Positions 9,836 to 62,831 of a DNA stretch of 64,000 bases are shown piece by piece. Under the pieces are notes generated by a model, which saw only the letters and a list, made by a program, of their open reading frames with translations, made no database searches and was not told the DNA's origin. The stretch spans positions 806,001 to 870,000 of the forward strand of contig NZ_CP084629.1 in NCBI RefSeq assembly GCF_022878925.1. Reading direction: 5' to 3'. Origin of the DNA: Caballeronia sp. TF1N1 (GTDB lineage: Bacteria; Pseudomonadota; Gammaproteobacteria; Burkholderiales; Burkholderiaceae). Both the position numbers and the translations under genes were made by a program. Positions within the stretch are counted from its first letter, which is position 1. Each line of letters starts with the position of its first letter.

Positions 9836-10288
9836 TCATTCGAACTTGAGTTCTTTTAGCGCGGAAAGCCCGCTCAGCACGACCTTGCCGCGTTGATTGC
9901 GAACCATGGTGTCCATCACGAGAATTCGCTTGGCGTCCTTCTTCTCCACCACGGTCACGTTGATGGTGATGGTGTCGTCGATGAACACTGGCCCCAGAAA
10001 ACGCAGTTCTTGTCCGACATAAGCGAAGCCCGGACCGGTCAGTCGCGTGTGTGCGGCCGAGACGAGCGAGGCCGTCAACAGGCCGTGCACGACGCGTCTT
10101 CCGAACGGTGAGCGCTCCGCAAACGCTTGCTCCATGTGCAGGGGATTCAGATCGCCCGACAGATGGCCGAACGCATTGACCGCCGATTCGACCACGGTGT
10201 GGACGTCCACCTGCGAGCGGCCGATTTCTACATCGTCGAAGCGCAGCAGTTCGGGTGCTGCGGGAGCAGCGTGTAGTTGGGCGCTCAT
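9836..10288 (-). CDS. MaoC family (R)-specific enoyl-CoA hydratase/dehydratase
   Basis: A 150-residue single hot-dog domain protein. The hydratase signature is complete: GDLNPLHMEQAFAER with the catalytic Asp and His, then FGRRVVHGLLTA. It should add water to an enoyl-CoA or act in the reverse direction. It is the last gene of a five-gene acyl-CoA operon and overlaps the CoA-transferase gene by four bases. The second MaoC protein of the operon (13472-13897) is only distantly similar, so the two probably act on different CoA esters. Confidence 0.85.
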   Translation of the reverse strand: MSAQLHAAPAAPELLRFDDVEIGRSQVDVHTVVESAVNAFGHLSGDLNPLHMEQAFAERSPFGRRVVHGLLTASLVSAAHTRLTGPGFAYVGQELRFLGPVFIDDTITINVTVVEKKDAKRILVMDTMVRNQRGKVVLSGLSALKELKFE

Positions 10289-11478
10289 GCATTTCTCCTC
10301 GAAGTCAGCGCGATGCCGGCATCGACCAGTTCGTCGATCCGCGTAGTGTCATAACCCAGTTCGGCCAGCACCTCACGTGTGTGCTCGCCCTGTCGCGGAG
10401 GATGCCGTCGCATGGGCGGCGCCTCGCCGTCATAGCGCACCGGATGCGCAAGTACGCGTATCGGTCCCGCCTCTTCGTGTTCGAACGACATGATCATCTG
10501 GTTATGCGCGACTTGAGGGTCGACCTCGACCTGCTCGTAGTCGTTGACCGGCGCGAACCAGATATCGTGCTCCTCGAAGACGCGCATCCATGTTTCTGTC
10601 GTGCGCCTGGTCAACGCGTCATAGACCAGTCGATTGATTTCATCGCGACGTCGCACGTTGTCTTTCGGATGCGTGAACTCGGCGAGCGCGGGGACATCGA
10701 GCGCATTGGAGAGCTTCTGCGTCGGTGTAAGCGAGATCGCGATATAACCGTCGAGCGTTTTATAGACGCCATAGGGCGCAGGATGAAAGCGGCTGCCCGT
10801 TGGCGGCTGGGTGCGCTGCCAGAGCGGACCCTTGTTCATGTAGTACGTGAAAGGCTCGATCTGCAAATCCAGTGCCGCGTTCAGCAAATTGCTCTCGACA
10901 CGCGTACCCACACCCGTGCGTTCGCGCGACTGAAGTGCAGCAACCACGCCGAACGCTGCCAGCACCGCTGCATGTTGATCGACGATAGCGGAGCCGACAG
11001 GCGTCGGCGGCGAATCGGCTTCACCGGAAAGCATGGTCATGCCGCTCATCGCTTGTAATAGCAGGTCTTGTCCCGGGCGCTTGAGATAGGGACCCGACGA
11101 TCCATAACCCGTGCACGAGCAATACACGAGACGCGGGTTGACCTCGTGCACTTGCGCATAGCCGAAGCCCATCTTGTCGAGCACACCGGGGCGGTAGTTC
11201 TCTATCAATACATCGGCTTTGCGGATCAGCCGCCATACGATTTCACGCGCGGCTTCCTCACGCAAGTCGAGCGAGATGCTGCGCTGATTGCGATTGCCCA
11301 GCAGAAAGAACACGCTCACGCCTTCGACGAAAGCGTCCGCGCCGGTCCAGCTTCGCTCGAACGCGCCGCCCGGTGGCTCGATCTTGATGACATCCGCGCC
11401 GACATCGGCGAGCATCTGCACGGCGGCGGGCCCTTGCAGAAAATGGGTGAAACTCAGTACCTTGATGCCTTCCAGCAT
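10285..11478 (-). CDS. CaiB/BaiF family (class III) CoA-transferase
   Basis: A 397-residue cytoplasmic enzyme that moves CoA between carboxylic acids, activating a free acid without ATP. The N-terminus MLEGIKVLSFTHFLQGPAAVQMLADVGAD (partly quoted) and KIEPPGG near residue 35 are typical, and the catalytic Asp is in RPGQDLLLQAMSGM near residue 165. I start it at 11478, where AGGGGGAG precedes the ATG, rather than at an upstream codon at 11520 that would run into the acyl-CoA dehydrogenase gene. Its place in the operon suggests it makes the CoA ester that the dehydrogenase and hydratases then process; a C4-C6 dicarboxylate imported by the adjacent TRAP system is a plausible substrate. Confidence 0.88.
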   Translation of the reverse strand: MLEGIKVLSFTHFLQGPAAVQMLADVGADVIKIEPPGGAFERSWTGADAFVEGVSVFFLLGNRNQRSISLDLREEAAREIVWRLIRKADVLIENYRPGVLDKMGFGYAQVHEVNPRLVYCSCTGYGSSGPYLKRPGQDLLLQAMSGMTMLSGEADSPPTPVGSAIVDQHAAVLAAFGVVAALQSRERTGVGTRVESNLLNAALDLQIEPFTYYMNKGPLWQRTQPPTGSRFHPAPYGVYKTLDGYIAISLTPTQKLSNALDVPALAEFTHPKDNVRRRDEINRLVYDALTRRTTETWMRVFEEHDIWFAPVNDYEQVEVDPQVAHNQMIMSFEHEEAGPIRVLAHPVRYDGEAPPMRRHPPRQGEHTREVLAELGYDTTRIDELVDAGIALTSRRNA

Positions 11479-11503
11479 AAACTCCCCCTTCGTCCGCGCG
11501 TTA

Positions 11504-12667
11504 TCAGGCAAGCGCCGCACGCGCGATGATCATGCGTTGTATTTCGGATGTCCCTTCGACGATCTCGAGCACCTTGGCGTCGCCGAATGCGCGCGCTACC
11601 GGATACTCCGCCATCACGCCGTAACCGCCGTGTATCTGCAAAGCCTGATGCGCTGCGTGCATCGCCTGTTCCGAGGCGAAGAGCTTGGCTTGCGATGCCT
11701 GCATGTCGAACGGCGCGCCGCTGTCCTTCAATGTGGCGGCGTCGTAAAGCATGAGACGTGCGGCATGCGCGTGCGTCGCCATGTCGGCGACCTTGAATTG
11801 CAGGCCTTGAAACTCCGCTATCGCGCGGCCGAACGCGCGTCGCGTCTTCATGTATTCGACGGACCGTTCGAGCGAGCCTTGCAAGATGCCGAGCGCAAGC
11901 GCGCCGATTAAAATGCGGCCTGTGCTGATCTGCGCGAGCGTCTGACGCAAACCCGCGCCGCGTTCACCAAGCAGATTCTCTGCGGGGATCGCGCAGTTTT
12001 CGAAGAACAACTCGTGCGTGATCGAAGCGCGCCAGCCGATCTTGCGCAGCTTGCGGCCCGTTTGATAGCCAGTAGTGCCCGAAGGCACGATGAAGTTCGA
12101 AATCTCTTTCTTGCCATCGGCACGCGTACCGGTCACAGCCGCGATTACCACCGGTCCGCCGAGTTCAGTGCCCGAGTTGCTGATGAAAGTCTTCGCGCCA
12201 TCGATGACCCAGCGCTCGCCATCGAAGCGCGCACGTGTGGCGATGTTGGCCGCATCCGATCCCGCATCGGGCTCGGACAAACCGATCGAACCGATCTGGC
12301 TGCCTTCGAGAACAGGCCTTAAATAAAGGTCCTTTTGCGTCGATGTGCCGTAGTTCGACAAGAGACTCGCGACAGTCGAATTGGCCATCAAGGCGTTCGC
12401 GACCGCACAATCTACGCGCGCCAGTTCTTCGAGCACGATGACAAACGAAAGCCAGTCGCCACCGCCACCGCCCCATTGCTCCGCATAGGGCAGGCCGGTG
12501 AAGCCAAGCTCGCCGGCTTGACGCCAGATATCGTAGGGAAAGGCTTCTTGCTCCCAGAGCTCCTCGGAATGCGGTGCAATCTCTTTGTCGGCGAAGCGGC
12601 GAACGGCTTCACGAATCATGGCGTGCTCTTCGCCGAGCCAGTGAGGCAAACGATGTATCGTGCTCAT
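11504..12667 (-). CDS. Acyl-CoA dehydrogenase
   Basis: A 387-residue flavoprotein that should introduce an alpha,beta double bond into an acyl-CoA and pass electrons to ETF. It has the three-part family fold: helical N-terminus, beta domain with [20 protein letters not shown] around residue 125, and helical C-terminus. The substrate signature [19 protein letters not shown] is near 340 and the catalytic Glu lies in [12 protein letters not shown] near 373. The start codon overlaps the stop of the enoyl-CoA hydratase gene (ATGA), so they are co-translated. Chain length and branching of the substrate cannot be read from the sequence. Confidence 0.9.
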
Positions 12668-13467
12668 TCGGTCACCGTCACGGTCGAGGCGCGCCGTGCA
12701 AGGCGCTTTTCCATGAACTGCCTCAAGCCCGCGCGCGCGCCTTCACTCGTGAAATTCACCGCGTATTGCGCTGCTTCAAAGTCGAGTCCTGCGGACAAGG
12801 GCATTTCGTTCGCGCGATTGAGCGCGCGCTTCGCCATTTCCATTGCGAAGGGGTCGTAGACGGCGAGTGTTTCGGCGAACTCGCGCACTGTATCGAACAA
12901 TGCATCGTGTTCGACGATCTCGTGCAGAAAGCCGAACGACGCGCATTCCTGAGCCGTATGACGCCGCCCGCTCAATACGAATCGCTTGGCGCAGGCGAGC
13001 CCCATCTTGGCGACGGCGAGTTGCGTGCCACCCCAGCCGGGCATGGTATTGAGCGTGATCTCGGGAAACCCGAAGCTCGCTTTCGTCGATGCAATCACGA
13101 AGTCGCAAGCAAGCGCCAATTCGAACCCGCCGCCTAGCGCGAAGCCATTGACCATTGCGATGGTCGGCTTGGCGCTTTCATGCAGGCGCAACAACGCGCG
13201 CTGCCCGGCTACCATGTCACGATACGCGCCCGCGCTGTCGAGCGTAACCAGCCGCTCGATATCGTTGCCAGCAGCGAAGGCCTTGGGACCGCTACCCGTG
13301 ATGGCGATGACGCGCGTTGCATCGTCGGCGAGTGCATCGTCGAGTCCTGCTTCGAGCGCCGCGAGCATTTCCGGCGTGAAGGCATTGAGTTTATCGGCGC
13401 GGTTGAGCGTCAGGAGACGCAGTGCGCCGTGCTGTTCCGCTATGACGGGCGAGGTGTTCATCAGCAT
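12664..13467 (-). CDS. Enoyl-CoA hydratase/isomerase family protein
   Basis: A 267-residue crotonase-fold protein. The oxyanion-hole segments are present (AAGNDIERL and NGFALGGGFELALACDFV), with a Glu at the second active-site position in FPEITLNTMPGWGGTQL. Two in-frame ATGs occur at 13467 and 13461; AAGGTG about ten bases before the first favours 13467, and both avoid overlapping the upstream MaoC gene. An earlier start at 13566 would lie wholly inside that gene and gives a non-family N-terminus. It should hydrate the product of the acyl-CoA dehydrogenase encoded next to it. Confidence 0.87.
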   Translation of the reverse strand: MLMNTSPVIAEQHGALRLLTLNRADKLNAFTPEMLAALEAGLDDALADDATRVIAITGSGPKAFAAGNDIERLVTLDSAGAYRDMVAGQRALLRLHESAKPTIAMVNGFALGGGFELALACDFVIASTKASFGFPEITLNTMPGWGGTQLAVAKMGLACAKRFVLSGRRHTAQECASFGFLHEIVEHDALFDTVREFAETLAVYDPFAMEMAKRALNRANEMPLSAGLDFEAAQYAVNFTSEGARAGLRQFMEKRLARRASTVTVTE

Positions 13468-13471
13468 CGTG

Positions 13472-13897
13472 TCACAGCACCTTGAGGTAAGTCTTGCCCG
13501 ATGCCACGACCACGCCGTCTTGCCGCGTGACATCGGCGACGAATACGCACACGTTGCGCTCTTCATCCTTCTCTTCGAGCGTGAGACGCGCAGTGACCGT
13601 ATCGCCTATAAACACCGGCGCATTGAACGTGATGTCATAGCGATACGACACCGCGCCCGGACTCGGCGCCTTCGCCGCCATATGGCCCATGACTGTCGAA
13701 AGAAAGCCGACCGAGAGACAGCCTTGCGCAATGCGCTTCTCGAAGCGCGTGGTCTTGGCGAACTCTTCGTTCAGATGCACGGCGTAAAAGTCGCCGACTA
13801 TCCCGGCAAATCCATAGATGTCGTATTCGGATACGGTCTTTGCGAAATCGGCGGTATCGCCGATTGCATAACAGTCCATGTGCGGGCGTTTGGCCAT
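13472..13897 (-). CDS. MaoC-like hot-dog hydratase, first gene of the acyl-CoA operon
   Basis: A protein of about 141 residues with one hot-dog domain. GDFYAVHLNEEFAKTTRF keeps the Asp and His of (R)-enoyl-CoA hydratases, but the following motif is RIAQGCLS where most members have a His before Gly. The start is uncertain: the ATG at 13897 gives the cleanest N-terminus (MAKRPHMDCY), though no Shine-Dalgarno is obvious there; a GTG at 13954 is the alternative. It heads the minus-strand operon, back to back with the TRAP transporter genes. It may be a hydratase for a branched or dicarboxylic acyl-CoA. Confidence 0.75.
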   Translation of the reverse strand: MAKRPHMDCYAIGDTADFAKTVSEYDIYGFAGIVGDFYAVHLNEEFAKTTRFEKRIAQGCLSVGFLSTVMGHMAAKAPSPGAVSYRYDITFNAPVFIGDTVTARLTLEEKDEERNVCVFVADVTRQDGVVVASGKTYLKVL

Positions 13898-14224: not shown

Positions 14225-15259
14225 ATGAATTCGCTTTTCAAGGCGCATCGCTCGTTGCGCGTGACGATGAGCGCCGTGCTCGCCGCATTGTGCGTCGCCG
14301 CAACAGGCAGCGCGATGGCGCAAGACAAGGTCGTGATGAAGCTTGGGCATACGCTCGCACCGGACAATCACTATCAACTGACCGCGCAGGTCTTCGCCAA
14401 GGAAGTCGCGCAACGCACGCATGGCCATGTCGAGATTCAGCTCTTTCCCCAATCGCAACTCGGGGGCGAAGTGCAGATGGCGCAGGCGTTGCGCACTGGC
14501 ACGCAGGAACTCATGATCTCCGCGCAAGCGCCGATCGACAATACGATCAAGCAATGGCAGATTTTCGACATGCCTTATCTCTTCAGCAGCATGGATGAGG
14601 CGAACAAGGTGCTGCAAGGACCCGTCGGCCGCAAGTATCTCGACATGATGCAGCCGGTCAACATGGTCGGTCTCACGTGGCTTGCTGTCGGCGAACGCAA
14701 TCTCTTCACGACCAAGCGTCCGGTCACGTCGCTTGCCGACATGAAGGACCTGAAGGTGCGCGTGATGCAAAGCCCTGGCTATATCGCGGGCTATAAGGCG
14801 CTCGGCGCGAACCCCACGCCGCTCGCCTATAACCAGCTGTTCCTCGCGCTGTCGCAAGGCCTCGTCGATGGCGCGGACACATCGCCCGAGCAATTCGTGC
14901 AGGACAAGTTCTCCGACGTCGCCAAGCATTTCTATGTGACGCACGTGAACTACCTGCCCGTCGTGCTCGCGATGAGCAAGAGCGCCTGGACCAAGCTGTC
15001 GCCTGCTGACCAGAAGGCTTTTCAAGAGTCAGCCGCGGTCGCCGCCGATTTCGACCTGAAGGAGTACAAGCGCGAATACGACGCCGCACTCGCGACGATG
15101 AAGGCCAAGGGCATTCAAGTGACGATGGTCGACACTGCGCCGTGGGCCGAAGCCACGAAGTCCGCGCGTGACGAACTCGTTGCGAAGATTCCGGATGGCG
15201 CCGCGCTCTACGCCGAGATGAACGCGGCCAAGCAGGCCTCGTCCGTGGCATCCAAATGA
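14225..15259 (+). CDS. TRAP transporter solute-binding protein, DctP family
   Basis: A 344-residue periplasmic protein with a signal peptide (cleavage near residue 33 after AMA). The mature part follows the DctP pattern: LGHTLAPDNHYQLTAQVFAKEV at the start, LFPQSQLGGEVQMAQALRTG near 80, and the conserved carboxylate-binding Arg in LKVRVMQSPGY near residue 178. This protein brings an organic acid to the membrane subunits. GGAAGGAGAC stands just before the ATG. It lies divergent from the acyl-CoA operon, so its ligand is probably the free acid activated by the CoA-transferase. Confidence 0.9.
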   Translation: MNSLFKAHRSLRVTMSAVLAALCVAATGSAMAQDKVVMKLGHTLAPDNHYQLTAQVFAKEVAQRTHGHVEIQLFPQSQLGGEVQMAQALRTGTQELMISAQAPIDNTIKQWQIFDMPYLFSSMDEANKVLQGPVGRKYLDMMQPVNMVGLTWLAVGERNLFTTKRPVTSLADMKDLKVRVMQSPGYIAGYKALGANPTPLAYNQLFLALSQGLVDGADTSPEQFVQDKFSDVAKHFYVTHVNYLPVVLAMSKSAWTKLSPADQKAFQESAAVAADFDLKEYKREYDAALATMKAKGIQVTMVDTAPWAEATKSARDELVAKIPDGAALYAEMNAAKQASSVASK

Positions 15260-15294
15260 CGCCTTTGTCACCGGAAGTGCCGGAGGAAACCCGT

Positions 15295-15828
15295 ATGGAA
15301 AAGCTCGCGCGTGGCTTGATGTTCATCGACGACATGGTTCTGAAGCTGAACCTGTTCGTCAGCAGTTGCCTCTTGCTGGCAGCGGTGATCGTCGCCGGTC
15401 TCGGGGTCGTGTTCCGCTTCGTGCTGCACGACTCGCTTTCGTGGTCCGACGAAGCCGCGGCGTATCTCTTCGTCTGGCTCACGTGCCTGGGTGCGGCGGC
15501 AGGCGTCAAGTTGCGCGCACATCCCGAAGTGCGCGTGCTGGCCGATCGCGTGCCGGCGGCGATCGCGCCCTTGCTCAAGGACTTCACGGACTGCGCGATT
15601 CTCGCGCTCGGCGCCGTGTTCGTCGCGTATGGCTCGGACATGCTCGCGTTGATGGGCACGGAGACGGCCGCATCGATTCCCATCTCGATGGTCTATCCGT
15701 ATCTTTCTATTCCCGTGTGCGGCGCGTTGCTCGTGTTTCATTCGCTGGTGCGCATCGTCGTGTCGCACCTCGCGCCGCAGACGCAGACCAACGCCGCTTT
15801 GATCGAAGGCGTGTCCGACCATCTCTAG
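15295..15828 (+). CDS. TRAP transporter small permease, DctQ family
   Basis: A 177-residue inner-membrane subunit with four hydrophobic segments. The helix ending SLSWSDEAAAYLFVWLTCLG is the family signature. An ATG at 15256 overlaps the dctP stop, but GGAGG at 15282-15286, 8 bases before the ATG at 15295, is by far the best ribosome site and gives the usual N-terminus. It partners the large permease encoded 12 bases downstream in sodium-driven uptake. Confidence 0.86.
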   Translation: MEKLARGLMFIDDMVLKLNLFVSSCLLLAAVIVAGLGVVFRFVLHDSLSWSDEAAAYLFVWLTCLGAAAGVKLRAHPEVRVLADRVPAAIAPLLKDFTDCAILALGAVFVAYGSDMLALMGTETAASIPISMVYPYLSIPVCGALLVFHSLVRIVVSHLAPQTQTNAALIEGVSDHL

Positions 15829-15840
15829 GATAAAGACATC

Positions 15841-17112
15841 ATGTGGGCAATCGCTCTAGGCGCGGGGCTGCTCGGCCTCGGTGTACCGGTGGCCATCTGT
15901 ATTGGTATCGCGGCGACGCTGGCGTTGTCGATCAATGGCACGCCGCTGCTCGTCATTCCGCAACAGCTCTTCTCGAACCTCAATAACGTGGGTCTGCTCG
16001 CGATTCCGTTCTTCATGCTCACGGGCGCGATCATGGATTCGGGCGGCGTTTCCCGACGCATCATCGAGTTTTCGCAAGCGCTCGTCGGCTTCATGCGTGG
16101 CGGTATCGGACAGGTCACGATTGTCGCGAGCATGTTCTTCGCGGACCTCTCGGGATCGGCCACGGCGGATACGGCGGCGATCGGCTCCGTGATGATTCCG
16201 GGCATGGTGAAGAAGGGCTATTCGCGTGCGTTCGCGGTGGCATTGCAATCGGCGGCGGGATCGCTCGGGCTGCTTTCGCCGGTATCGATGAGCATGCTCG
16301 TCTATGCTTACACGGCGAATGTATCGGTAGGCACGATGTTTATTGCCGGTATCTTGCCGATGCTCCTAGTGGTCGCTTCGTTCATGATCGTGAACTACGT
16401 GACCGCCGTGCGCAACGACTACAGCGCGGTCGAGCCGTTCAGCGCACGCAAGTTGTGGACTACGTTTCGCGAAGCATTCTGGGCCTTGCTCACGCCGATC
16501 ATCATTCTGGGCGGCATCCTTGGCGGCATCTTCACGCCGGTCGAGGCAGGCGTGGTTGCGGCGGTGTACGTCACCCTGGTGAGCGCGTTCATCTTCCGCA
16601 CCTTGAAGCTCTCGCATTTCAAGGAGATTCTCGTCAAGACGTCGGTGAACACGACGCGCGTGTCGTTCCTGTTGGGTCTTGCCTTCGTGCTCGGCCGGTA
16701 TCTGATCGAAGCGCAAATTCCCTTGCATGTGGCGAACAGTTTCCTTGCGATCACGACGAGCGCCATCATCCTGCTCATTCTCATCAACCTGTTTCTGATC
16801 GCGGCGCATACGGTGCTTGAAACCATTTCGAGTATCGCGGTGATAATCCCGGTGTTCCTGCCGCTCGTCGTGCAGATGCATATCGATCCCGTCGTATTCG
16901 GCGTGATCGTGCTGATCAATTCGGCTATTGGCATCAATCTGCCACCTATTGGCTTCTGCCTCTTCACGGCGGCGTCCATTGGTGGTGTATCGGTCGAAAA
17001 GGCGACGCGTGCGATTCTGCCTTTCATTCTCGCGCTCGTGATCGACTTACTGCTGATCATTTTCTTCCCGCATATTCCGCAGTTTCTGCCGCATCTGATG
17101 TCGATGAAATAA
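15841..17112 (+). CDS. TRAP transporter large permease, DctM family
   Basis: A 423-residue inner-membrane protein with about a dozen hydrophobic helices, the transport subunit of the TRAP system. Typical segments are FFMLTGAIMDSGGVSRRIIEF near residue 58, DLSGSATADTAAIGSVMIPGM near 102 and GIFTPVEAGVVAAVYV near 226. Length agrees with the family. AGGATAA precedes the ATG. A strong GC-rich hairpin follows the gene and separates it from poxB. Confidence 0.9.
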   Translation: MWAIALGAGLLGLGVPVAICIGIAATLALSINGTPLLVIPQQLFSNLNNVGLLAIPFFMLTGAIMDSGGVSRRIIEFSQALVGFMRGGIGQVTIVASMFFADLSGSATADTAAIGSVMIPGMVKKGYSRAFAVALQSAAGSLGLLSPVSMSMLVYAYTANVSVGTMFIAGILPMLLVVASFMIVNYVTAVRNDYSAVEPFSARKLWTTFREAFWALLTPIIILGGILGGIFTPVEAGVVAAVYVTLVSAFIFRTLKLSHFKEILVKTSVNTTRVSFLLGLAFVLGRYLIEAQIPLHVANSFLAITTSAIILLILINLFLIAAHTVLETISSIAVIIPVFLPLVVQMHIDPVVFGVIVLINSAIGINLPPIGFCLFTAASIGGVSVEKATRAILPFILALVIDLLLIIFFPHIPQFLPHLMSMK

Positions 17113-33235: not shown

Positions 33236-33374
33236 TACGCACAATCTCGCATCGAAACCCGTTAAGCAAAGCCGACGACCGTTTCGATTTGCAACGTTAA
33301 GAATCTTTACGGTCAGCCCTTTCGATCATTCAGCGATTTGCGGTGAGTCCCGCCAGCCGGGGCTTTCGCATGAT

Positions 33375-33390
33375 TGGCCCAGCCCTTGCA
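33375..33390 (+). promoter_or_regulatory. Sigma-54 (-24/-12) promoter of the thioesterase operon
   Basis: TGGCCC (33375-33380), five bases, TTGCA (33386-33390) matches the consensus TGGCAC-N5-TTGCW at all but one position. The invariant GG and GC are separated by exactly ten bases. Transcription would begin near 33401, about 22 bases before the first ATG. A gene for a sigma-54 activator closes the same block, which supports the call strongly. Confidence 0.75.
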
Positions 33391-33422
33391 TTGATAGCTC
33401 CGATAACAAACCGGAGCCGTCC

Positions 33423-33824
33423 ATGATCGAAGCAGGCCGAACCGCCACGCTCACGCATACCGTCTCATCCGCCGATCTCGCCTCTGCTCACGCGCATGAA
33501 GCGGATGAGCGCTATCCCGACGTGCTATCCACGCCCGCATTGTTGTCCCTTATCGAGCGCGCCTGCGCGGAACTCATGCGCGACTCCCTGCGCGACGGGC
33601 AGCTCTCCGTGGGCGTCACCACGCATCTCAATCATCTCGCACCGACACCACATGGCGCCGATGTCTCCGCCACCGCGACGTTTCGTGCAATCGAAGGCGC
33701 GCTGTACTGGTTCGACGTTGTCGCAGCCGATAACGGCGGCCCTGTCGGCAGCGCGAGCCATGCACGGGCCATCGTCGAGAGAAGCGTCATCGAGGCGCGC
33801 GCCGCGAAGCGCCGTTCGTCATGA
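33423..33824 (+). CDS. FlK-like hot-dog acyl-CoA thioesterase
   Basis: A 133-residue single hot-dog protein that should hydrolyse an acyl-CoA. It lines up with the fluoroacetyl-CoA thioesterase FlK family, and the catalytic triad can be seen: Thr37 in LSTPALL, Glu45 in LIERAC and His71 in THLNHLAPTPHG. The tail GSASHARAIVERSVIEARA matches the FlK GSGTHERAVI pattern. GGAG at 33413-33416 precedes the ATG. First gene after the sigma-54 promoter. Family members also hydrolyse ordinary acyl-CoAs, so fluorine specificity cannot be claimed; the gene may release CoA from dead-end esters made by the downstream ligase. Confidence 0.8.
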   Translation: MIEAGRTATLTHTVSSADLASAHAHEADERYPDVLSTPALLSLIERACAELMRDSLRDGQLSVGVTTHLNHLAPTPHGADVSATATFRAIEGALYWFDVVAADNGGPVGSASHARAIVERSVIEARAAKRRSS

Positions 33825-33879
33825 GCGTGCCCGCCATAACGAAGAATTCGCGGCAAAGGCCGCTCAACCGAGGAAAGAC

Positions 33880-35229
33880 ATGGACGTGGCTGTGACTGCC
33901 CCAACGCATGGCGTGTACTTCGACGAAGCCTTCGAAACGCTGCCGTCAGCCGGCGTGCGTCGTCATCAGGACGCGCTCTGGTCGACGCAATGGACGTATC
34001 TGCGTGCGATGTCGGCGTTCTATCGTTCGAAGCTCGCACGCTGGATCGAACGCGACGACATCACGCTCGATTCGCTGCAGGACCTGCCCTTCACGGAGAA
34101 GGACGAGTTGCGCGTGAGTCAGGAGGGTGCGTCGCCATTCGGCGATTACGTGGCCTGCGCGGAAAGCGCCATTGCGCGCTTGCATCGCACGTCGGGCACG
34201 ACCGGGCGCCCTTTGATTCTCGCGAACAGCCTACGCGATGCATTGGACATCGCACGCGTCGGCGCACGCTCGATGTGGGCGGCGGGTCTGCGCCCCGATG
34301 ATCGCGTGATCCACTGTCTCAACTATTGCATGTGGACCGGCGGCTTCACCGATCACACCATTCTCGAAGCCACTGGCGCGACGGTGGCGCCGTTCGGCGT
34401 CGGCAACACGCGGATGTTGATCGACTCCATTCTGAGTCTCGGCATCAACGCGATTTCTTGTACGCCTTCGTATCCCGCGCTTATCGAGCAAGTGTTGCGC
34501 GAAACAGGCGGACCTACACCGCGCGAACTCGGCCTGAAGCTCGGACTGTTCGGCGGCGAAGCAGGTCTCGACAACCCCGAGTTACGCGCGACGATGGAAG
34601 ACAAGTGGGGCTTCAAGGTGCGCAATGCGAACTTCGGCTTATCGGAAGTTCTGAGCATTCTTGGCGGACAGACGGACTGGACCAACGACCTCTTGTTTCA
34701 TGCGGCGGATGTCGTGTTCGCGGAGATCATCGATCCGGAGACACTCGCGCGTTTGCCCATGGAAGAGGGCGTCACGGGCGAGCTCGTGTGCACGCATTTG
34801 CGCAAGCAATGTCAGCCACTCGTGCGTTATCGCACCCGCGACGTGGTGACGGTGACTGCCGTCGATGCCGGCGAGGATGGACGCACGGCATGGCGTTTTC
34901 GCGTGACGGGTCGCACCGACGACATGTTCAACGTGCGCGGCATCAACGTCTTTCCGGGTGCCGTCCGGCTCGCTGTGGAAGCGCTGCCGCAATGGGCCTC
35001 GGGACAGTTTCGCATCGTGCTCAAGGGCGATGGCCCTTACGACCGCATTGCGATGACTGTGGAAGCGGCGAGCGGTCTCGATATCGCTCGCTGGGGCGAT
35101 GCCGCGCATCACATCGAGGCGGCCGTACGCAATCGCATAGGCGCGAGCGCAACGGTCACGATGGTGCCATTCGAACATTTTCCGCGTACCGAAGGCAAGA
35201 CGCGCTGGATCGACAAGGAGCTCGCATGA
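33880..35229 (+). CDS. PaaK-like AMP-dependent acyl-CoA ligase
   Basis: A 449-residue enzyme of the phenylacetate-CoA ligase group (ANL superfamily), which activates a carboxylic acid with ATP and CoA. The P-loop LHRTSGTTGRPL is near residue 103, GLFGGEAGLDNPELRATME near 222, and the hinge/C-domain GRTDDMFNVRGINVFPGAV near 344 with the conserved RGINVFP of PaaK. The length fits. ATG at 33880 follows GAGGAAAGAC. It is the activating enzyme of the operon; an aromatic or short aliphatic acid is possible. Confidence 0.86.
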   Translation: MDVAVTAPTHGVYFDEAFETLPSAGVRRHQDALWSTQWTYLRAMSAFYRSKLARWIERDDITLDSLQDLPFTEKDELRVSQEGASPFGDYVACAESAIARLHRTSGTTGRPLILANSLRDALDIARVGARSMWAAGLRPDDRVIHCLNYCMWTGGFTDHTILEATGATVAPFGVGNTRMLIDSILSLGINAISCTPSYPALIEQVLRETGGPTPRELGLKLGLFGGEAGLDNPELRATMEDKWGFKVRNANFGLSEVLSILGGQTDWTNDLLFHAADVVFAEIIDPETLARLPMEEGVTGELVCTHLRKQCQPLVRYRTRDVVTVTAVDAGEDGRTAWRFRVTGRTDDMFNVRGINVFPGAVRLAVEALPQWASGQFRIVLKGDGPYDRIAMTVEAASGLDIARWGDAAHHIEAAVRNRIGASATVTMVPFEHFPRTEGKTRWIDKELA

Positions 35230-35993
35230 GCGACGTAACGCTACACATGGAAGGACCGGTTGCCATCGTCACGTTGAATCGACCAGAGCGCATGAACGCA
35301 ATCGGCGGTGCGTTGCTCGACGATCTGCACGACGCGCTGCAAGGCGCGCGCGGCGATACATCATGCCGCGTCATCGTGCTCACCGGTGCGGGACGCGCGT
35401 TTTGCGCGGGCGACGACCTCAAGGAGTTCGACGCTCAAAGCAAAAGCGATGAGAGTATCCGCAGTCATATCGGGCGCATTCAGCGCATCACGCGCGATCT
35501 GATGTTCGGTGCCAAGCCCGTGGTCGGCGCGGTGCATGGTTATGCTGTCGGCGGCGGCTTCGAGTGGATGCTCAATTGCGACATCGTGGTCGCATCGGAC
35601 GATCTCGTGTGCTTCTTTCCCGAGATGGAGTGGGGACAATTCGTGACGGGCGGCGTCACGCATCTGCTGCCTCAGGCGATAGGGCATCAACGCGCGATGG
35701 AGCTTTGGTTGCTCGGCGAAAGGCAGAGCGCGCAGACGCTGCTATCGATGGGTTTGGTCAATCGCGTGGTTCCGCGCGATGCCGTACTGGAAACCGCGCT
35801 CGAACTTGCAGCACGTATCGCACAACGCTCATCGACGTCCGTATCGAAGCTAAAGAAACTGGTGACGAGCGACCTGTCGGGCTTGCTGGCTCGCAGTCTC
35901 GAACTCGAGAGTGCCGTCACCATCGAGGCATTCGCGCTGCCGGATGCCGCCGAGCGCGTGAAGGCCTTCGCGAACAGGAAGACGTCGCAATGA
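35226..35993 (+). CDS. Enoyl-CoA hydratase/isomerase family protein
   Basis: A 255-residue crotonase-fold protein co-translated with the ligase (ATGA overlap). The oxyanion-hole strand FCAGDDLKEF is near residue 61 and HGYAVGGGFEWMLNCDIV near 104; a candidate catalytic Glu is in FFPEMEWGQFVTGG near 135. Crotonase proteins hydrate, isomerise, hydrolyse or dehalogenate CoA esters, so the chemistry is not fixed by sequence. Its product or substrate is presumably the CoA ester made by the ligase. Confidence 0.86.
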   Translation: MSDVTLHMEGPVAIVTLNRPERMNAIGGALLDDLHDALQGARGDTSCRVIVLTGAGRAFCAGDDLKEFDAQSKSDESIRSHIGRIQRITRDLMFGAKPVVGAVHGYAVGGGFEWMLNCDIVVASDDLVCFFPEMEWGQFVTGGVTHLLPQAIGHQRAMELWLLGERQSAQTLLSMGLVNRVVPRDAVLETALELAARIAQRSSTSVSKLKKLVTSDLSGLLARSLELESAVTIEAFALPDAAERVKAFANRKTSQ

Positions 35994-36709
35994 GTCCCAA
36001 AGCCCTTACGTTCGATTACTTCGGCACGCTCGTCGATGTGGATCAAGGCGGCACGCTCGGCATGGCGGAAGTCCTGCGGCGCATCTCGGTCGAGGCAGAC
36101 GAACCTGTCTCCCAGATCTATCTCGATTGGGACATCCGCAACGTGCGTCTTTATCGAGGCCAGGCCTACGCGCGCTATCGCGATGTTGCGCAACAAGCAC
36201 TCGCCGATTGCCTCGATACGCACTGGCCCGGCGCGCGTAAAGGCCATGCGATGGAAACGCTGAACGACGTGTTCCTCTCGCATCTGGTCGAAGCATCGCC
36301 GGCACACGCCGATGCTGAGCCGTTCCTCGATTGGGCTGCGGCGCGCTATCCGCTCATGCCGATCACCAACATGGACAGCGATCTATGGCGGCGCACGCGG
36401 CTCACACGCTATTTCGAGCATGTGACGACAGCGGAGATGGCGCAGGCCTACAAGCCATCGCAGGCGATCTTTGCGCTCGCGCTCGACCGCCTGGCGGTGG
36501 ACGCGCGCGACGTGCTGCATTGTTCGCTCGCGAGCTGGGCCGATATCGACGGAGCAAAGCCTCTTGGTATGGCGGTGGCCTGGATCAATCGCACGCGAGA
36601 GACGCTCGGAACGTGGCAGCCACGTCCCGATTTCGAATTCGACACGCTGTCGCCGGTACGGGACGTTCTTGAAGGTCTGTCATTGACTGCGACTGGGGAA
36701 ACGATATGA
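35990..36709 (+). CDS. Haloacid-dehalogenase-like HAD hydrolase
   Basis: A 239-residue HAD-superfamily protein close in layout to L-2-haloacid dehalogenases. The nucleophile is Asp9 in TFDYFGTLVDVD; motif II is in PITNMDSDLWRR, the Lys of motif III in AYKPSQAIFALALDRL, and the late segment CSLASWADIDGAKPLGMAVAWINR (cited in part: GMAVAWINR) has the WINR that marks haloacid dehalogenases. Phosphatase activity is the alternative for any HAD protein. ATG overlaps the stop of the crotonase gene, so it is a true operon member. Confidence 0.82.
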   Translation: MSPKALTFDYFGTLVDVDQGGTLGMAEVLRRISVEADEPVSQIYLDWDIRNVRLYRGQAYARYRDVAQQALADCLDTHWPGARKGHAMETLNDVFLSHLVEASPAHADAEPFLDWAAARYPLMPITNMDSDLWRRTRLTRYFEHVTTAEMAQAYKPSQAIFALALDRLAVDARDVLHCSLASWADIDGAKPLGMAVAWINRTRETLGTWQPRPDFEFDTLSPVRDVLEGLSLTATGETI

Positions 36710-37848
36710 AACGATTCAACTTGGCGATGGCGTTCATGGCATGCGCATTGACAACGGTCGGCGCAACGCGCGCGGCATACGCGCAGGAAGTGATAAAGAT
36801 CGGTGTGGCAGGGCCGCTCACTGGCAGCGCCGCGCAAAGCGGCAAGGACGATGAGCGCGGTGTACGGCTTGCCATCGACGAACTCAATGCGAAGGCTTTC
36901 ACAATTGCAGGCAAGCCCGTGCGCTTCGAACTCATCTCGATGGACGACCAGGGCGATCCGAAAGTAGGCGTGAGCGTAGCGCAAAAGCTCGTGGACGATG
37001 GCGTATCCGCCGTCATTGGCCATTACAACTCGGGCGTGAGCATTCCCGCCGCGCGCATCTACAACGATGCGCACGTGGTGATGATGACCGGCGCGTCATC
37101 GAACCCCCAACTCACGCACCTCGGCTATCCCTATGTCTTCCGGCTCGCGACCAACGACAACGTCATGGGTGGCCGCATGGCGCTTTATTCGGCGAAAGTG
37201 TTGAATGCACAACGCGCCGCGGTAATCGATGACCGCACCGCTTATGGCGTGGGCGTCGCCGATGTATTCGTCGACAGCGCAAAGAAGGCGGGCTTGCAGG
37301 TCGTCGCGCGTGAATACAGCACGGACAAGGCAACCGACTTCAAGGCCATTCTCACGCAGATCAAGTCGCGTAATCCGCAGGTCGTGTTTTATGGCGGCTA
37401 CTATGCACAGGCCGCGACGCTTGCGCGGCAAATGGGCGAACTCGGCATCAACGCAACGCTCGTAGGCGGCGACGGTATTTGCTCGCCTGAATTCGACAAG
37501 CTATCGGCCGGAGCCGCCGACAAGCGCATGTTCTGCGCGCAAGGCGGCGCGCCGCTCGATTCGTTACCGGACGGCAAGACCTTTCGCACGAAATTCAAGA
37601 GTGCGTTCAGCGCCGATGTCGATACCTATGCGCCCGCGTTCTATGCCGCGACGCTCGTCGTCGCGGACGCGATGCAGAAGACGGGATCGTCGAAGCCCGA
37701 GGTATACGTCAAAGCGCTGCGCGAGCAGGCGTTCACGAGCATTCTCGGCCCCGTGCGCTTCGATGCAAACGGCGATTGGGTCGATGCGCCGGTCACGGTG
37801 TATCAGTTGAACAGCGGCGCGCTCACTGCGATTGCGCAGAAGGATTGA
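36706..37848 (+). CDS. Liv-type ABC transporter substrate-binding protein (orphan)
   Basis: A 380-residue periplasmic protein with a signal peptide (residues 1-26, cleavage after AYA) and the Leu/Ile/Val-binding family fold: IGVAGPLTGSAAQSGKDDERG near residue 32, GVSAVIGHYNSGVSIPAARIY near 98 and VFYGGYYAQAATLARQMGELG near 225. The family also binds aromatic acids and amides. No permease or ATPase gene lies nearby, so it must use membrane components encoded elsewhere or act as a sensor. It overlaps the HAD gene by four bases and is the last gene before the sigma-54 activator. Confidence 0.87.
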   Translation: MKRFNLAMAFMACALTTVGATRAAYAQEVIKIGVAGPLTGSAAQSGKDDERGVRLAIDELNAKAFTIAGKPVRFELISMDDQGDPKVGVSVAQKLVDDGVSAVIGHYNSGVSIPAARIYNDAHVVMMTGASSNPQLTHLGYPYVFRLATNDNVMGGRMALYSAKVLNAQRAAVIDDRTAYGVGVADVFVDSAKKAGLQVVAREYSTDKATDFKAILTQIKSRNPQVVFYGGYYAQAATLARQMGELGINATLVGGDGICSPEFDKLSAGAADKRMFCAQGGAPLDSLPDGKTFRTKFKSAFSADVDTYAPAFYAATLVVADAMQKTGSSKPEVYVKALREQAFTSILGPVRFDANGDWVDAPVTVYQLNSGALTAIAQKD

Positions 37849-37904
37849 CGCGTCCGCTCTGAAAAATCGCAGTGCGGCGGCGGGATTTTGAACTGCTATA
37901 TTCG

Positions 37905-39761
37905 ATGACGTTGCCCGACCGCTTGCAGGAAGACATGGCCACCGTCGCGCTCGATCCCGATACCGTCACGCTCGAAGGGGCACTCGCCAGCACGAGATGG
38001 AAGAGCGCGCGCGTGCTTGCCGCAAACGAAGCACGGGTATGCCTGTTCACGCTGGATCGCGCGGGGCACGTGCTGGAAAGCATCGACGAATTCACGAAAG
38101 CGGACGCGGCGACACGCGATACGTTCTTTGCGCATTGTCCGTCCGCGCAGCTTGCCGCGTTGGCGGAAGCGGCCACGTCGATGTCGGATGGACGCTGCGT
38201 GATGCTGACGCTCGCGGGACGCGCCGCATCGTTTGCGCAGGCGTTCGCGCTGCGGGTCGAGACGCATGGGCGACGTGTTTTCCTCGTCGCATTGCGTGTG
38301 CTTGACGCAAGCGGCAACGGCAAGGGCTCGCCTGCAAGCCTCATCACGCTGCTGGGTGCAACGCTCGACGTGCTCCTCCAAAGCGCCTTCGATCTCGCCG
38401 TGTACGACACGCTCGTCGAAGAGCAACGCGCGATCATCGACCATATCGGCGATGGCTTGATGGTGATCGGGCAGCGCCATGTGCTACGCCACGTCAACTC
38501 GGTGGCGGGGCGTATTCTCGGCATCGATCCGAAAGCGAGTATCGGCAAGACGCTCAACGAGGTGATCGACTTCGAGCCGATCATCGGCCCGATCTTTCGC
38601 ACCGGCGTGGGCTATGTGGATCGCGAGTTGATCATCGACTCTCCAGCGCGCCATCTTCATCTACTGGATACGGCCATTCCCATCAAAAACCGCTGCGGGG
38701 AAGTGGTGTCTGTCGTCAACACGTTCCGTGAGATGCGTCGTGTGCGGAAGATGGCGGGACGCTATGCGGGCAACCATGCGCGCTTTACCTTCGACAGTGT
38801 GATCGGTTCGAGTGTCGCTTTGAAGCGCGCGCTCGATGCGGCGAAGAAGGCGGCGCGCGGCGCGTCCAACGTCCTACTTTCGGGCGAAAGCGGCGTCGGC
38901 AAGGAGGTTTTCGCGCAGGCCATTCACAATGCGAGTGTGCGCAGCACGCTGCCGTTCATCGCAATCAATTGCGCGGCGCTTCCTCATGCGCTCATCGAGA
39001 GCGAACTCTTCGGACATGCGCCCGGCAGCTTTACGGGCGCGGCGCGCGATGGTCGTCCAGGCAAGTTCGAATCCGCCGATGGCGGCACGGTATTTCTCGA
39101 CGAGATTTCGGAGTTGCCTATCGACGTGCAGGCGAAACTGCTTCGCGTGTTGCAGGAACGCGAGGTCACGCGTATTGGCGATACACGCGGCATTCCGGTG
39201 GACGTTCGCATCGTCTGCGCGAGCAACCGTGATCTTGCGGCCATGGTGCGGGAAAAAACCTTCCGCGAAGACCTGTTTTATCGATGCAACGTAATCGAGA
39301 TCACGATTGCGCCGTTGCGCGAGCGGCGCGAAGACATCGCGGCAATGACGGCATTCTTCCTCGAACGATACTGCACGCGGATGCACAAGCCGACGCCATC
39401 GCTCTCGAAGCACGCGCTGCAACAGCTCGAAGTTCACGGTTGGCCCGGTAACGTGCGCGAGCTGGAAAATCTCGTCGAGAAGATGGTGAATTTGAACGAA
39501 GGCGATTGCATTGCGGATGTATCGCCGTTTTTGCGCAGTACGACAAGCACGCAGCCAGGCAGCGATACGCGCAACGCTTCACGTCAAGAGCCAGTGTCGC
39601 TTCAGGAGGCCGAGCGCATTGCGATCGAGAATGCGCTCGAAGCATGTCGCTTCAATGTTACGACCTGCGCGAAGTTGCTGCGCGTATCGAAGCCCGCGCT
39701 TTACGCGAAGATGAAGCGGCACGGCATTCGTATCGAGCGGTCGCTTCGACAGCCGTTCTAA
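37905..39761 (+). CDS. Sigma-54-dependent transcriptional activator with PAS domain
   Basis: About 618 residues in three parts: an N-terminal sensor region of unknown type (1-150), a PAS domain (about 160-270, EEQRAIIDHIGDGLMVIGQR), an AAA+ domain (about 290-525) and a Fis-type helix-turn-helix at the end (AKLLRVSKPALYAKMKRHGI). Walker A is GESGVGKE near 326, Walker B GGTVFLDEIS. The sigma-54 contact loop reads GSFTGA rather than GAFTGA. The start is either this ATG or a GTG at 37872. The adjacent operon has a sigma-54 promoter, so this is very probably its activator, sensing the substrate or its CoA ester. Confidence 0.87.
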   Translation: MTLPDRLQEDMATVALDPDTVTLEGALASTRWKSARVLAANEARVCLFTLDRAGHVLESIDEFTKADAATRDTFFAHCPSAQLAALAEAATSMSDGRCVMLTLAGRAASFAQAFALRVETHGRRVFLVALRVLDASGNGKGSPASLITLLGATLDVLLQSAFDLAVYDTLVEEQRAIIDHIGDGLMVIGQRHVLRHVNSVAGRILGIDPKASIGKTLNEVIDFEPIIGPIFRTGVGYVDRELIIDSPARHLHLLDTAIPIKNRCGEVVSVVNTFREMRRVRKMAGRYAGNHARFTFDSVIGSSVALKRALDAAKKAARGASNVLLSGESGVGKEVFAQAIHNASVRSTLPFIAINCAALPHALIESELFGHAPGSFTGAARDGRPGKFESADGGTVFLDEISELPIDVQAKLLRVLQEREVTRIGDTRGIPVDVRIVCASNRDLAAMVREKTFREDLFYRCNVIEITIAPLRERREDIAAMTAFFLERYCTRMHKPTPSLSKHALQQLEVHGWPGNVRELENLVEKMVNLNEGDCIADVSPFLRSTTSTQPGSDTRNASRQEPVSLQEAERIAIENALEACRFNVTTCAKLLRVSKPALYAKMKRHGIRIERSLRQPF

Positions 39762-61238: not shown

Positions 61239-62825
61239 TGTTGAGGCCAATTTGAAATGTCCGATATCCGGCTAAATTGAAATGTCCGGTTTGGGGTCGG
61301 TTCCTGCTTCCAAAGAAGACAGTTTCTCCACCGAGGCTGCCCGCATTTCGGCACTTCTGAGCATCATCGCGTTCAGGTCGATCTGCTTGAGTTCGCGTTG
61401 CTTGCGCGTGTTGTTGGCGCGCATCTTCGGGCGCACCTCTTCGCCCCGATTGGTGCGTGAGGGCGCTGACTTGATAGGGCGATTGTCGCGCTCCATCTGC
61501 ACCTGCCTCGACAGCGCAAGGACGTGTCCAAGACGCTTGTTGTCGACCTCAGCGCCCTGGTCGACATGGGACAGGCGATCATAACGTCGACAGGGCAACG
61601 CCGCGCCATTCGCCCAAATCTCGATGCGCCCGTCCGGGTACTCGTACACATCGAGATAGCGATGGATCAAGGCGCGCGTCGCCGGCGAATCTTCAAGCAG
61701 GTACATCACGCGATCGTATTGCACCGTCAGCGAGGCCGAGACGCAACGAGATTCGCGTGCCGTCAGAATCGAATCGAGATCCTCGTCGGCACGCACCGGA
61801 CGATGCGCGTCAAAGTCGCTCTTCGCGCGCTTGCCGAAACGGTCGTTGAAGTCGGCGATGAAGTGGGGCGCATAAGCATTCGCGGCCTCCCACGTGTCGA
61901 TTTCGCGCAGCCGCAATTCCTTGACGAGCCGATCCTGCAAGGTCAAGTTGGCACGCTCCACGCGCCCCTTCGCCTGACTGCTGTTGGCGCACAGGGTCTC
62001 GACGTTGAGCTCGTACAAGGCCCGGCCAAACTGCGTGACCCCCTTGTCAGCCTTGCGCGAGCCCCGGTTGAGCGAGAACACACTGGCTTTATCGCTATAC
62101 AGCGCCAAGGGCTTGCCGTGCTGCTCGATGTAGCGGCGCGTTGCCTCGAAATAACTGAAGGTCGATTCGGTGGCCGTGAAGTGCAGGGTCATCAGACGGC
62201 TGGTGGCATCGTCGATAAACACCAGCAGCGTGCAGGCCGGCGCGCGCTCCTCGAACCAGCGATGATCGCTGCCATCGATCTGGATCAGCTCGCCATAGCA
62301 CGAGCGACGGTTGCGCGGCTGATGGATCCTTGGAGGACGCTGTCGACGTGGCGTCCAGAGTCCGGCGCCGATCATGAGCCGCCGAACGGTTTCCTTGGCC
62401 AGCCGAATGTCATGACACTCGCGCAGCTTCTCGCAGGCAAGCGTCGGGCCAAAATCGCTATAGCGCTCTTTGACGATGGCCACGGCCCGGACCGCCAAGC
62501 CCGCGTCGACACGATGATTGCCCGTTTGACCGCGCTTGCCGGAAACCAGGCCCGGCGCGCCTTGTTCGCGTAACCGCGCACTGAGACGCCGCACCTGTCG
62601 TGTACTCAGTCCAAGTCGCTCGGCGGCCCGCCACGGTTTGAGCAGTCCGTCGACCACTGACTGAATCACTTTGAATCGGTCCAACTCGCGCATCGACATG
62701 GTAATCGTGTCCGTTGCAGCCATCGCGGTCTCCTGCGCCGAAGCATCGGCGCGGGGTAAGCTTAGGCGGCTCGAAGCGGACATTTGAATCTGGCTAAAAG
62801 CGGACATTACAATCTAGCCGCTACA
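61239..62825 (-). mobile_element. Complete IS1202/ISNCY-like insertion sequence
   Basis: About 1587 bases with one transposase gene. The ends read inward as TGTTGAGGCCAATTTGAAAT (left, from 61239) and TGTAGCGGCTAGATTGTAAT (right, from 62825), imperfect inverted repeats, each followed by ATGTCCG and an internal second ATGTCCG copy about 25 bases in. The exact end bases are inferred from this symmetry and no target duplication could be confirmed. Confidence 0.75.
61272..62723 (-). CDS. Transposase, IS1202/ISNCY-like (DDE type)
   Basis: A 483-residue transposase. The N-terminus has a helix-turn-helix (RAAERLGLSTRQVRRLSARLRE) and the core an rve-type integrase domain. Candidate DDE residues are in IQIDGSDHRWF, YSDKASVF and KGRVERANLTLQDRL. 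It starts at 62723, with AGGAGACCGCG before the ATG; a longer frame up to 62807 would reach into the terminal repeat. Apparently intact. It shares long identical stretches with the second transposase at 62865-64000. Confidence 0.86.
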   Translation of the reverse strand: MAATDTITMSMRELDRFKVIQSVVDGLLKPWRAAERLGLSTRQVRRLSARLREQGAPGLVSGKRGQTGNHRVDAGLAVRAVAIVKERYSDFGPTLACEKLRECHDIRLAKETVRRLMIGAGLWTPRRQRPPRIHQPRNRRSCYGELIQIDGSDHRWFEERAPACTLLVFIDDATSRLMTLHFTATESTFSYFEATRRYIEQHGKPLALYSDKASVFSLNRGSRKADKGVTQFGRALYELNVETLCANSSQAKGRVERANLTLQDRLVKELRLREIDTWEAANAYAPHFIADFNDRFGKRAKSDFDAHRPVRADEDLDSILTARESRCVSASLTVQYDRVMYLLEDSPATRALIHRYLDVYEYPDGRIEIWANGAALPCRRYDRLSHVDQGAEVDNKRLGHVLALSRQVQMERDNRPIKSAPSRTNRGEEVRPKMRANNTRKQRELKQIDLNAMMLRSAEMRAASVEKLSSLEAGTDPKPDISI

Positions 62826-62831
62826 AGTCAG

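What the first reader, a model, noticed from the sequence alone, without database searches (positions are those of the whole stretch)
33375..39761. Self-contained sigma-54 operon: FlK-like thioesterase, PaaK-like ligase, crotonase, haloacid-dehalogenase-like HAD, orphan binding protein and its own activator
Seen: a promoter matching TGGCAC-N5-TTGCW at all but one base sits 22 bp (predicted start) before a chain of five genes, four of them joined by ATGA overlaps, and a sigma-54 activator gene follows. Known: FlK hydrolyses fluoroacetyl-CoA with a Thr-Glu-His triad; all three are present (T37, E45, H71). The HAD protein has the WINR mark of haloacid dehalogenases. Inference: the unit may activate, process and detoxify a halogenated or otherwise toxic carboxylic acid, with the thioesterase as a safety valve. 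I know of no described pathway with this set.
Basis: partly seen in the sequence, partly recalled or inferred. Interest (0 to 1): 0.72.

Follow-up and report, generated by a model that had tools for sequence, protein, structure and literature searches.

The report
Likely beta-amino-acid breakdown operon
This self-regulated bacterial gene set most likely imports a beta-amino acid, attaches it to coenzyme A and strips off its nitrogen, so it looks like a new variant of a known but rarely noticed pathway rather than a system for chlorinated or fluorinated acids.

Summary
A sigma-54 promoter (one mismatch in 11) ends 32 nt before a five-gene operon followed by its own activator. The set recurs: 31 of 45 related loci match all six genes. 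A promoter match of at least 10/11 lies upstream in 29 of 47 regions (0.2 expected) and in none of six scanned ligase-crotonase loci without activator, thioesterase or HAD. A doubled palindromic activator site lies upstream.

The interpretation changes. The ligase is not PaaK, which the genome has elsewhere. It carries five of six substrate-pocket residues (L, W, D, G, N) that Otzen et al. 2015 (PMC4619459) reported for BvaA, the beta-valine CoA ligase; these are invariant in 51 of 51 aligned ligases. The crotonase has E113, E133 and F139 as in BvaB1, the beta-valinyl-CoA ammonia lyase, at the same numbers. The binding protein keeps an amino-acid pocket. The unit is therefore most likely a beta-amino-acid importer part, CoA ligase and CoA ammonia lyase.

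The FlK-like thioesterase may clear CoA esters. The HAD lacks three residues of true haloacid dehalogenases and the phosphatase Asp; its role is open. Substrate and activities are inferred, not shown. I call it a new variant of a known kind.

The parts
33280..33311 (+). putative doubled activator site (UAS): CGTTTCGATTTGCAACG at 33280-33296 and CGTTAAGAATCTTTACG at 33295-33311, 15-bp period
   Evidence: CGTTAA-N5-TTAACG, at least 9/12 matches, in 31 of 37 upstream regions vs 2.9 expected (consensus taken from the same set, so partly circular); the pattern CGTTAA-N5-TTTACG occurs exactly once in the own genome
33375..33390 (+). sigma-54 -24/-12 promoter, TGGCCC-N5-TTGCA
33423..33824 (+). FlK-like hotdog thioesterase (133 aa), T37/E45/H71
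   Evidence: Pfam PF22636 88 bits; FlK structures E 1e-12; alignment A5
33880..35229 (+). PaaK-like CoA ligase (449 aa), BvaA type: L147 W152 D158 G226 N251
   Evidence: TIGR02155 212 bits, cut-off 646; pocket residues against PMC4619459
35226..35993 (+). crotonase (255 aa), BvaB1 type: E113 E133 F139; putative beta-aminoacyl-CoA ammonia lyase
   Evidence: alignment; numbering against PMC4619459
35990..36709 (+). HAD-family hydrolase (239 aa), nucleophile D9, no Asp at +2
36706..37848 (+). Liv-type periplasmic binding protein (380 aa) with amino-acid pocket S109 S132 D151 Y180 Y232 D256
37935..39761 (+). sigma-54 activator (608 aa; alternative start 37905): variable N-terminus, conserved PAS, AAA+ with GSFTGA, Fis-type HTH

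Best explanation
The unit is a beta-amino-acid catabolic operon. The PAS-containing activator senses the compound or a product (inferred) and turns on the operon from the doubled site through sigma-54. The binding protein captures a small amino acid and docks on a Liv permease encoded elsewhere (inferred). The BvaA-type ligase makes the beta-aminoacyl-CoA. The BvaB1-type crotonase eliminates ammonia to give an enoyl-CoA and may also hydrate it; the enoyl-CoA enters leucine, valine or fatty-acid breakdown. The FlK-like thioesterase hydrolyses CoA esters that stall or are reactive. The HAD acts on a C-X bond of the substrate or product; this step is the least certain.
For: A crotonase follows the ligase in all 45 loci. 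PMC4619459 lists six pocket changes between PaaK1 and BvaA (L167, W172, D178, G245, N270, I278). The first five are L147, W152, D158, G226, N251 in the window and invariant in 51 of 51 aligned ligases, the window included; the genome's own PaaK has Y, F, A, A and a gap there. In the Pseudomonas relative L033, with the start my gene caller chose (467 aa; BvaA 466), they are numbered L167 W172 D178 G245 N270. E113, E133, F139 carry BvaB1's numbers in the eight BvaB1-type crotonases printed, the window included; 54 of 56 aligned entries share the trio, the window counting three times. L031 joins both cluster types: ligase, crotonase, acetyl-CoA acetyltransferase-like protein, second crotonase, as in SBV1, then thioesterase, crotonase, binding protein, activator; its second crotonase hits 3R0O best, as reported for BvaB2. 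L040 has a biotin-carboxylase-type pair nearby (NCBIfam matches below cut-off), as SBV1 has 3-methylcrotonyl-CoA carboxylase; the window's genome has a 74% identical relative of one subunit. The binding protein has S109, D151, Y180, Y232, D256, invariant in 11 of 11, at the places of S79, D121, Y150, Y202, E226 of the Leu/Ile/Val protein (pocket list recalled). The genome has a real PaaK (710.9 bits, cut-off 646.3) and PaaG elsewhere.
Against: No experiment, and no BvaA/BvaB1 sequence in hand: the comparison uses residues and lengths printed in the paper. The sixth pocket residue (BvaA I278) does not map cleanly: by offset it falls on S259, by alignment next to I260, which is I in only 32 of 51. 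The SBV1 table has no thioesterase, HAD or Liv binding protein, so the substrate may differ from beta-valine. Six of 45 loci have only ligase and crotonase. A crotonase with both Glu can simply be a hydratase.
Confidence: 0.75

Rival explanations
1. One reading: the operon activates, dehalogenates and detoxifies a halogenated acid, with the FlK-like thioesterase removing toxic haloacyl-CoA and the HAD removing the halogen.
For: FlK family match; nearest solved HADs by single sequence are haloacid dehalogenases and azetidine-2-carboxylate hydrolase; HAD dehalogenases can act on alpha-fluoro-beta-alanine (PMC12184663, passages).
Against: HAD lacks R41, Y157, N177 equivalents (L45, F161, A181; residue roles recalled) and falls below the NCBIfam type II cut-off (98.1 vs 125.4). 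Ligase and crotonase have beta-amino-acid features. L031, L025, L039, L040 and L045 show no HAD in the DNA held. The fluoroacetate cluster of Caballeronia S22 has a different gene set (PMC11812338, passages).
Confidence: 0.07
2. A plain enoate pathway: the ligase activates an unsaturated acid and the crotonase hydrates it, with no nitrogen chemistry.
For: Crotonase keeps both catalytic Glu residues; best solved match is 3-hydroxypropionyl-CoA dehydratase, though the SBV1 paper reports that relation for one of its ammonia lyases too (passage).
Against: Invariant Asp in the ligase pocket and amino-acid pocket in the binding protein; same residues as the shown ammonia lyase BvaB1.
Confidence: 0.12
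3. Aromatic acid (phenylacetate-like) degradation or lipid turnover, as automatic annotation suggests.
For: Where sources name the ligase relatives, most say phenylacetate-CoA ligase (120 of 4041 listed).
Against: Score far below the PaaK cut-off (212 vs 646 bits); the genome has its own PaaK and PaaG; aryl-pocket residues replaced; BvaA does not activate phenylacetate (PMC4619459).
Confidence: 0.03

Closest known systems
Beta-valine pathway of Pseudomonas sp. SBV1 (bvaA, bvaB1, bvaB2; PMC4619459)
   Same: PaaK-like ligase followed by a crotonase with the same reported pocket and active-site residues; a transcriptional regulator (PDB match 4QHS) next to them; L031 and L040 share further SBV1-like neighbours
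   Different: window unit adds FlK-like thioesterase, HAD and Liv binding protein; lacks the acetyl-CoA acetyltransferase, second crotonase, permease and carboxylase genes in cis; substrate unknown
Phenylacetate pathway PaaK/PaaG/PaaI
   Same: ligase fold, crotonase, hotdog thioesterase as a release valve for CoA esters (PaaI, passages of PMC4498308)
   Different: no ring oxygenase in the unit, pocket residues changed, separate paaK and paaG in the same genome
FlK fluoroacetyl-CoA thioesterase
   Same: hotdog family, T-E-H triad, His and Arg near the C-terminus (H113, R115)
   Different: FlK F33 falls on D28 here if the alignment offset is extended (lid role recalled); no fluorine-related gene seen in the unit
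L-2-haloacid dehalogenase / L-azetidine-2-carboxylate hydrolase (HAD type II)
   Same: D nucleophile, T, K, S, D, WINR; no second Asp of phosphatases
   Different: R41, Y157, N177 equivalents replaced; 47 bits to the best solved member

Membership tests
BvaA beta-amino acid CoA ligase | six substrate-pocket residues reported for BvaA | tested here: met
   five of six present and invariant in 51 of 51; sixth (I278) ambiguous
BvaA beta-amino acid CoA ligase | ATP- and CoA-dependent activation of beta-valine, not phenylacetate | not testable with these tools
   needs an enzyme assay
BvaB1 CoA ammonia lyase | E113, E133, F139 | tested here: met
   same residues and numbers
BvaB1 CoA ammonia lyase | deamination of beta-aminoacyl-CoA | not testable with these tools
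   needs an enzyme assay
PaaK phenylacetate-CoA ligase | curated TIGR02155 cut-off and aryl pocket Y136, F141, A147 | tested here: not met
   212 of 646 bits; L, W, D instead; control: the genome's own PaaK passes with 710.9
L-2-haloacid dehalogenase | catalytic R41, Y157, N177 (recalled) | tested here: not met
   L45, F161, A181; 98.1 of 125.4 bits for TIGR01428
FlK-like thioesterase family | PF22636 gathering score and T/E/H triad | tested here: met
   88.4 vs 27 bits; E45, H71 in 12 of 12, T37 in 11 of 12
fluoroacetyl-CoA-specific FlK | F33 and F36 lid (recalled) | tested here: inconclusive
   Y31 aligns with F36; D28 would face F33 only by extending the offset, and varies
sigma-54 dependent operon | -24/-12 element plus AAA+ activator with GAFTGA-type loop | tested here: met
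   loop reads GSFTGA; dependence itself not tested
amino-acid-binding Liv-type protein | S79, T102, D121, Y150, Y202, E226 pocket (recalled) | tested here: met
   S, S/T, D, Y, Y, D in 11 aligned proteins; E to D noted

The most novel reading that the evidence does not exclude
The four enzymes form one new route for beta-amino acids that carry a leaving group or strained ring at C2. The HAD would substitute it (as HADs are reported to do with alpha-fluoro-beta-alanine) to give an isoserine-type acid; the ligase and crotonase would then deaminate it to a pyruvoyl-CoA-type ester, and the FlK-like thioesterase would release the keto acid. This would join nitrogen removal and C-X hydrolysis in one sigma-54 operon.
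Probability: 0.06. Interest if true: 0.8.

Novelty: new variant of a known kind. Interest (0 to 1): 0.52.

Why it matters
A protein group that annotation pipelines call phenylacetate-CoA ligase and enoyl-CoA hydratase probably removes nitrogen from beta-amino acids. If so, the pathway shown in Pseudomonas sp. SBV1 exists, often with a binding protein and its own sigma-54 activator, across Caballeronia, Burkholderia, Azospirillum, Pseudomonas, Variovorax and others. It offers new CoA-dependent ammonia lyases, useful for making beta-amino acids, and a concrete way to test what FlK-like thioesterases do outside fluorine biology.

Tried and rejected
Halo-acid reading: weakened by missing HAD residues and by relatives without HAD. 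Phenylacetate: rejected by pocket residues and the separate paaK/paaG. Carnitine-like reading from L049/L050 (neighbouring SDR, Rieske, choline-sulfatase and BKACE genes): dropped, because the nearest of those genes lie on the other strand and none was apparent among my unscanned gene calls of L057/L058. Azetidine-2-carboxylate as substrate: considered because 3smv is the best single-sequence hit; the HAD profile scores other HADs higher (literature listing). Sulfur chemistry from the rhodanese protein of L040: its cluster was seen only in L039/L040, dropped. Other targets of the activator: 15 own-genome sites with at most one mismatch, fewer than the 39 of the reversed-pattern control; looking 160 bp downstream on the matched strand only, the window's has 10/11, L068 has 9/11 and the rest 8 or less; L068 not followed. 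Literature, judged from listings: searches (none; 15 of 26 listed) gave only the SBV1 paper as relevant; 54 and 55 (PaaK pocket, FlK residues) returned none; 66 gave the Caballeronia S22 note; 85 listed 30 of 675, with the SBV1 paper first and the rest apparently unrelated uses of BVAB1. 'Not described as a whole set' rests on these searches of the open-licence library only. No structure prediction was run.
Full report
What is there. The window lies on a 7.07 Mb genome in nine contigs. Its ligase is 96% identical to that of Caballeronia grimmiae, so it is very probably a Caballeronia. The finding's coordinates are right. The six genes, their order, three ATGA overlaps and the -24/-12 element are in the sequence. 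A start near 33401 (inferred from the usual spacing) would leave a leader of about 22 nt before the ATG at 33423.

Is the promoter real? One site with one mismatch in 64 kb is not striking. Its conservation is. I scored 300 nt upstream in 47 regions: the window, 43 of the 45 loci (all but L012 and L029), L048, L049 and L051. At least 10 of 11 matches occur in 29 of 47, against 0.21 expected from first-order resampling; at least 9 of 11 in 36 of 47 against 3.2; all 11 in seven. The gene starts of L015, L016, L018 and L021 were estimates. The 11 misses at 9 are L016, L031, L035, L039, L040 and six loci with neither activator, thioesterase nor HAD (L034, L036, L037, L042, L043, L049). Against a strict link to the activator, L023, L024 and L030 (10/11 or better) and L025 (9/11) have the promoter but no activator in the DNA held; L024 and L030 are contigs of about 5 kb, L025 is a stretch of 13 kb, L023 is not short. 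An earlier count (27 of 31) used loci picked for having a site and should not be quoted alone. Many loci are close relatives.

Activator site. A palindrome CGTTAA-N5-TTAACG, often doubled with a 15-bp period, lies mostly 75-140 bp upstream of the -24 box: 31 of 37 regions with at least 9 of 12 matches, 2.9 expected. The consensus came from the same regions, so the figure is inflated. The distance is similar within each group (-80 in most Caballeronia, -113 in L014, L017 and L019, about -92 in Burkholderia, -138/-123 in Azospirillum) but not across groups. In the own genome the window's copy is the only exact match to CGTTAA-N5-TTTACG, and of 15 near-matches the only one with a 10/11 promoter within 160 bp downstream.

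Conservation of the unit. Of 45 loci in named genomes, all have ligase then crotonase. By tblastn thresholds 31 match all six genes, 3 ligase-crotonase-activator, 2 all but the activator, one each of three smaller sets, and 6 the pair alone. The 31 include the decayed L012; some contigs are short. Flanking genes differ among the loci I displayed. In Pseudomonas the order is HAD, thioesterase, ligase, crotonase, binding protein, two Liv-type permeases, a fused double ATPase, activator; L035 has the same parts in another order (Pfam on L032). The unit is patchy: 20 of 58 genomes of the genus and 3 of 398 sampled from the phylum, own included, at E <= 1e-120.

Function. The ligase is not PaaK: 212 bits against a cut-off of 646, while the genome's own PaaK on contig C1 scores 710.9 and sits beside PaaG. 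Otzen et al. 2015 (PMC4619459; abstract, sections 17, 19 and 21, and passages) identified in Pseudomonas sp. SBV1 a PaaK-like ligase, BvaA, that activates beta-valine and weakly 3-aminobutyrate and beta-alanine but not phenylacetate, and a crotonase next to it, BvaB1, that eliminates ammonia from beta-valinyl-CoA. They list six pocket differences from PaaK1; the text seems to label the two proteins the wrong way round. Five of the six (L, W, D, G, N) are in the window ligase and in all 51 ligases aligned (window, 45 loci, L048, L049, L050, L057, L058); the own PaaK has Y, F, A, A and a gap there. In L033, with a 467-aa start, the residues fall at BvaA's own numbers. The sixth does not map cleanly. 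The crotonase has E113, E133 and F139, the residues and numbers given for BvaB1. In the wider alignment 54 of 56 entries share them, with the window present three times; the two that differ are the genome's paa crotonase (L002) and a second crotonase in L032. L031 carries the SBV1-like set and the window-like set side by side. L040 has a carboxylase-type pair near the ligase, as SBV1 has; the NCBIfam matches are below cut-off, so the exact enzyme is my reading. The binding protein keeps the amino-acid pocket. These lines point to a beta-amino acid.

Shown and inferred. Shown: gene content, conservation, residues. Inferred: substrate class, ammonia lyase activity, regulation, use of a Liv permease elsewhere (the own genome has one 91% identical to that in L025). 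A possible outlet for the product exists: a protein 74% identical to one carboxylase subunit of L040 is encoded on contig C2.

Thioesterase. It belongs to the FlK-like family, but so do many proteins (1147 at E <= 1e-5 among the 7995 candidates scored). The triad is common in the unit. Five Burkholderia-type loci have two copies, the second between the binding protein and the activator (L013, L015, L018, L021, L046). A valve for reactive enoyl-CoA or stalled aminoacyl-CoA, like PaaI (passages of PMC4498308), is my best guess.

HAD. The nucleophile is D9; the +2 position is F or W in the 12 aligned, so it is not a phosphatase (rule recalled). Against 3um9, R41, Y157 and N177 correspond to L45, F161 and A181 (residue list recalled). 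It may hydrolyse another C-X bond. HAD dehalogenases act on alpha-fluoro-beta-alanine (PMC12184663, passages), which links beta-amino acids to this fold and is the base of the novel case.

Verdict.

Noticed in passing
L012 9544-15780: In Candidatus Paraburkholderia kirkii the unit looks decayed: thioesterase, HAD, binding protein and activator matches are broken into pieces and the HAD nucleophile position is changed.
   Followed up: no
window 9836-13879 (-): A second CoA-type cluster: two MaoC-like proteins, CoA-transferase family III, acyl-CoA dehydrogenase and crotonase, next to a TRAP transporter at 14225-17112 (DctP and DctM).
   Followed up: partly
window 39024-39041 (activator loop): The activator loop reads GSFTGA instead of GAFTGA, with S invariant in the 15 aligned activators; the PAS domain is far better conserved than the N-terminal domain.
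   Followed up: no
window 61272-63983 (-): Two adjacent ORFs that look like transposase pieces (HTH-type matches in one, no Pfam match in the other; the transposase label is my reading).
   Followed up: no
L040, about 1.4-9.9 kb (similar in L039): Ligase-crotonase loci of two gammaproteobacterial MAGs carry a PrpD-like gene (weak match), an apparent TRAP transporter and a multi-rhodanese protein upstream.
   Followed up: partly
L032 15480-17063, L035 7978-9504: The two Liv-type ATPases appear fused into one protein of 508-527 residues; two ABC domains confirmed by Pfam in L032.
   Followed up: partly
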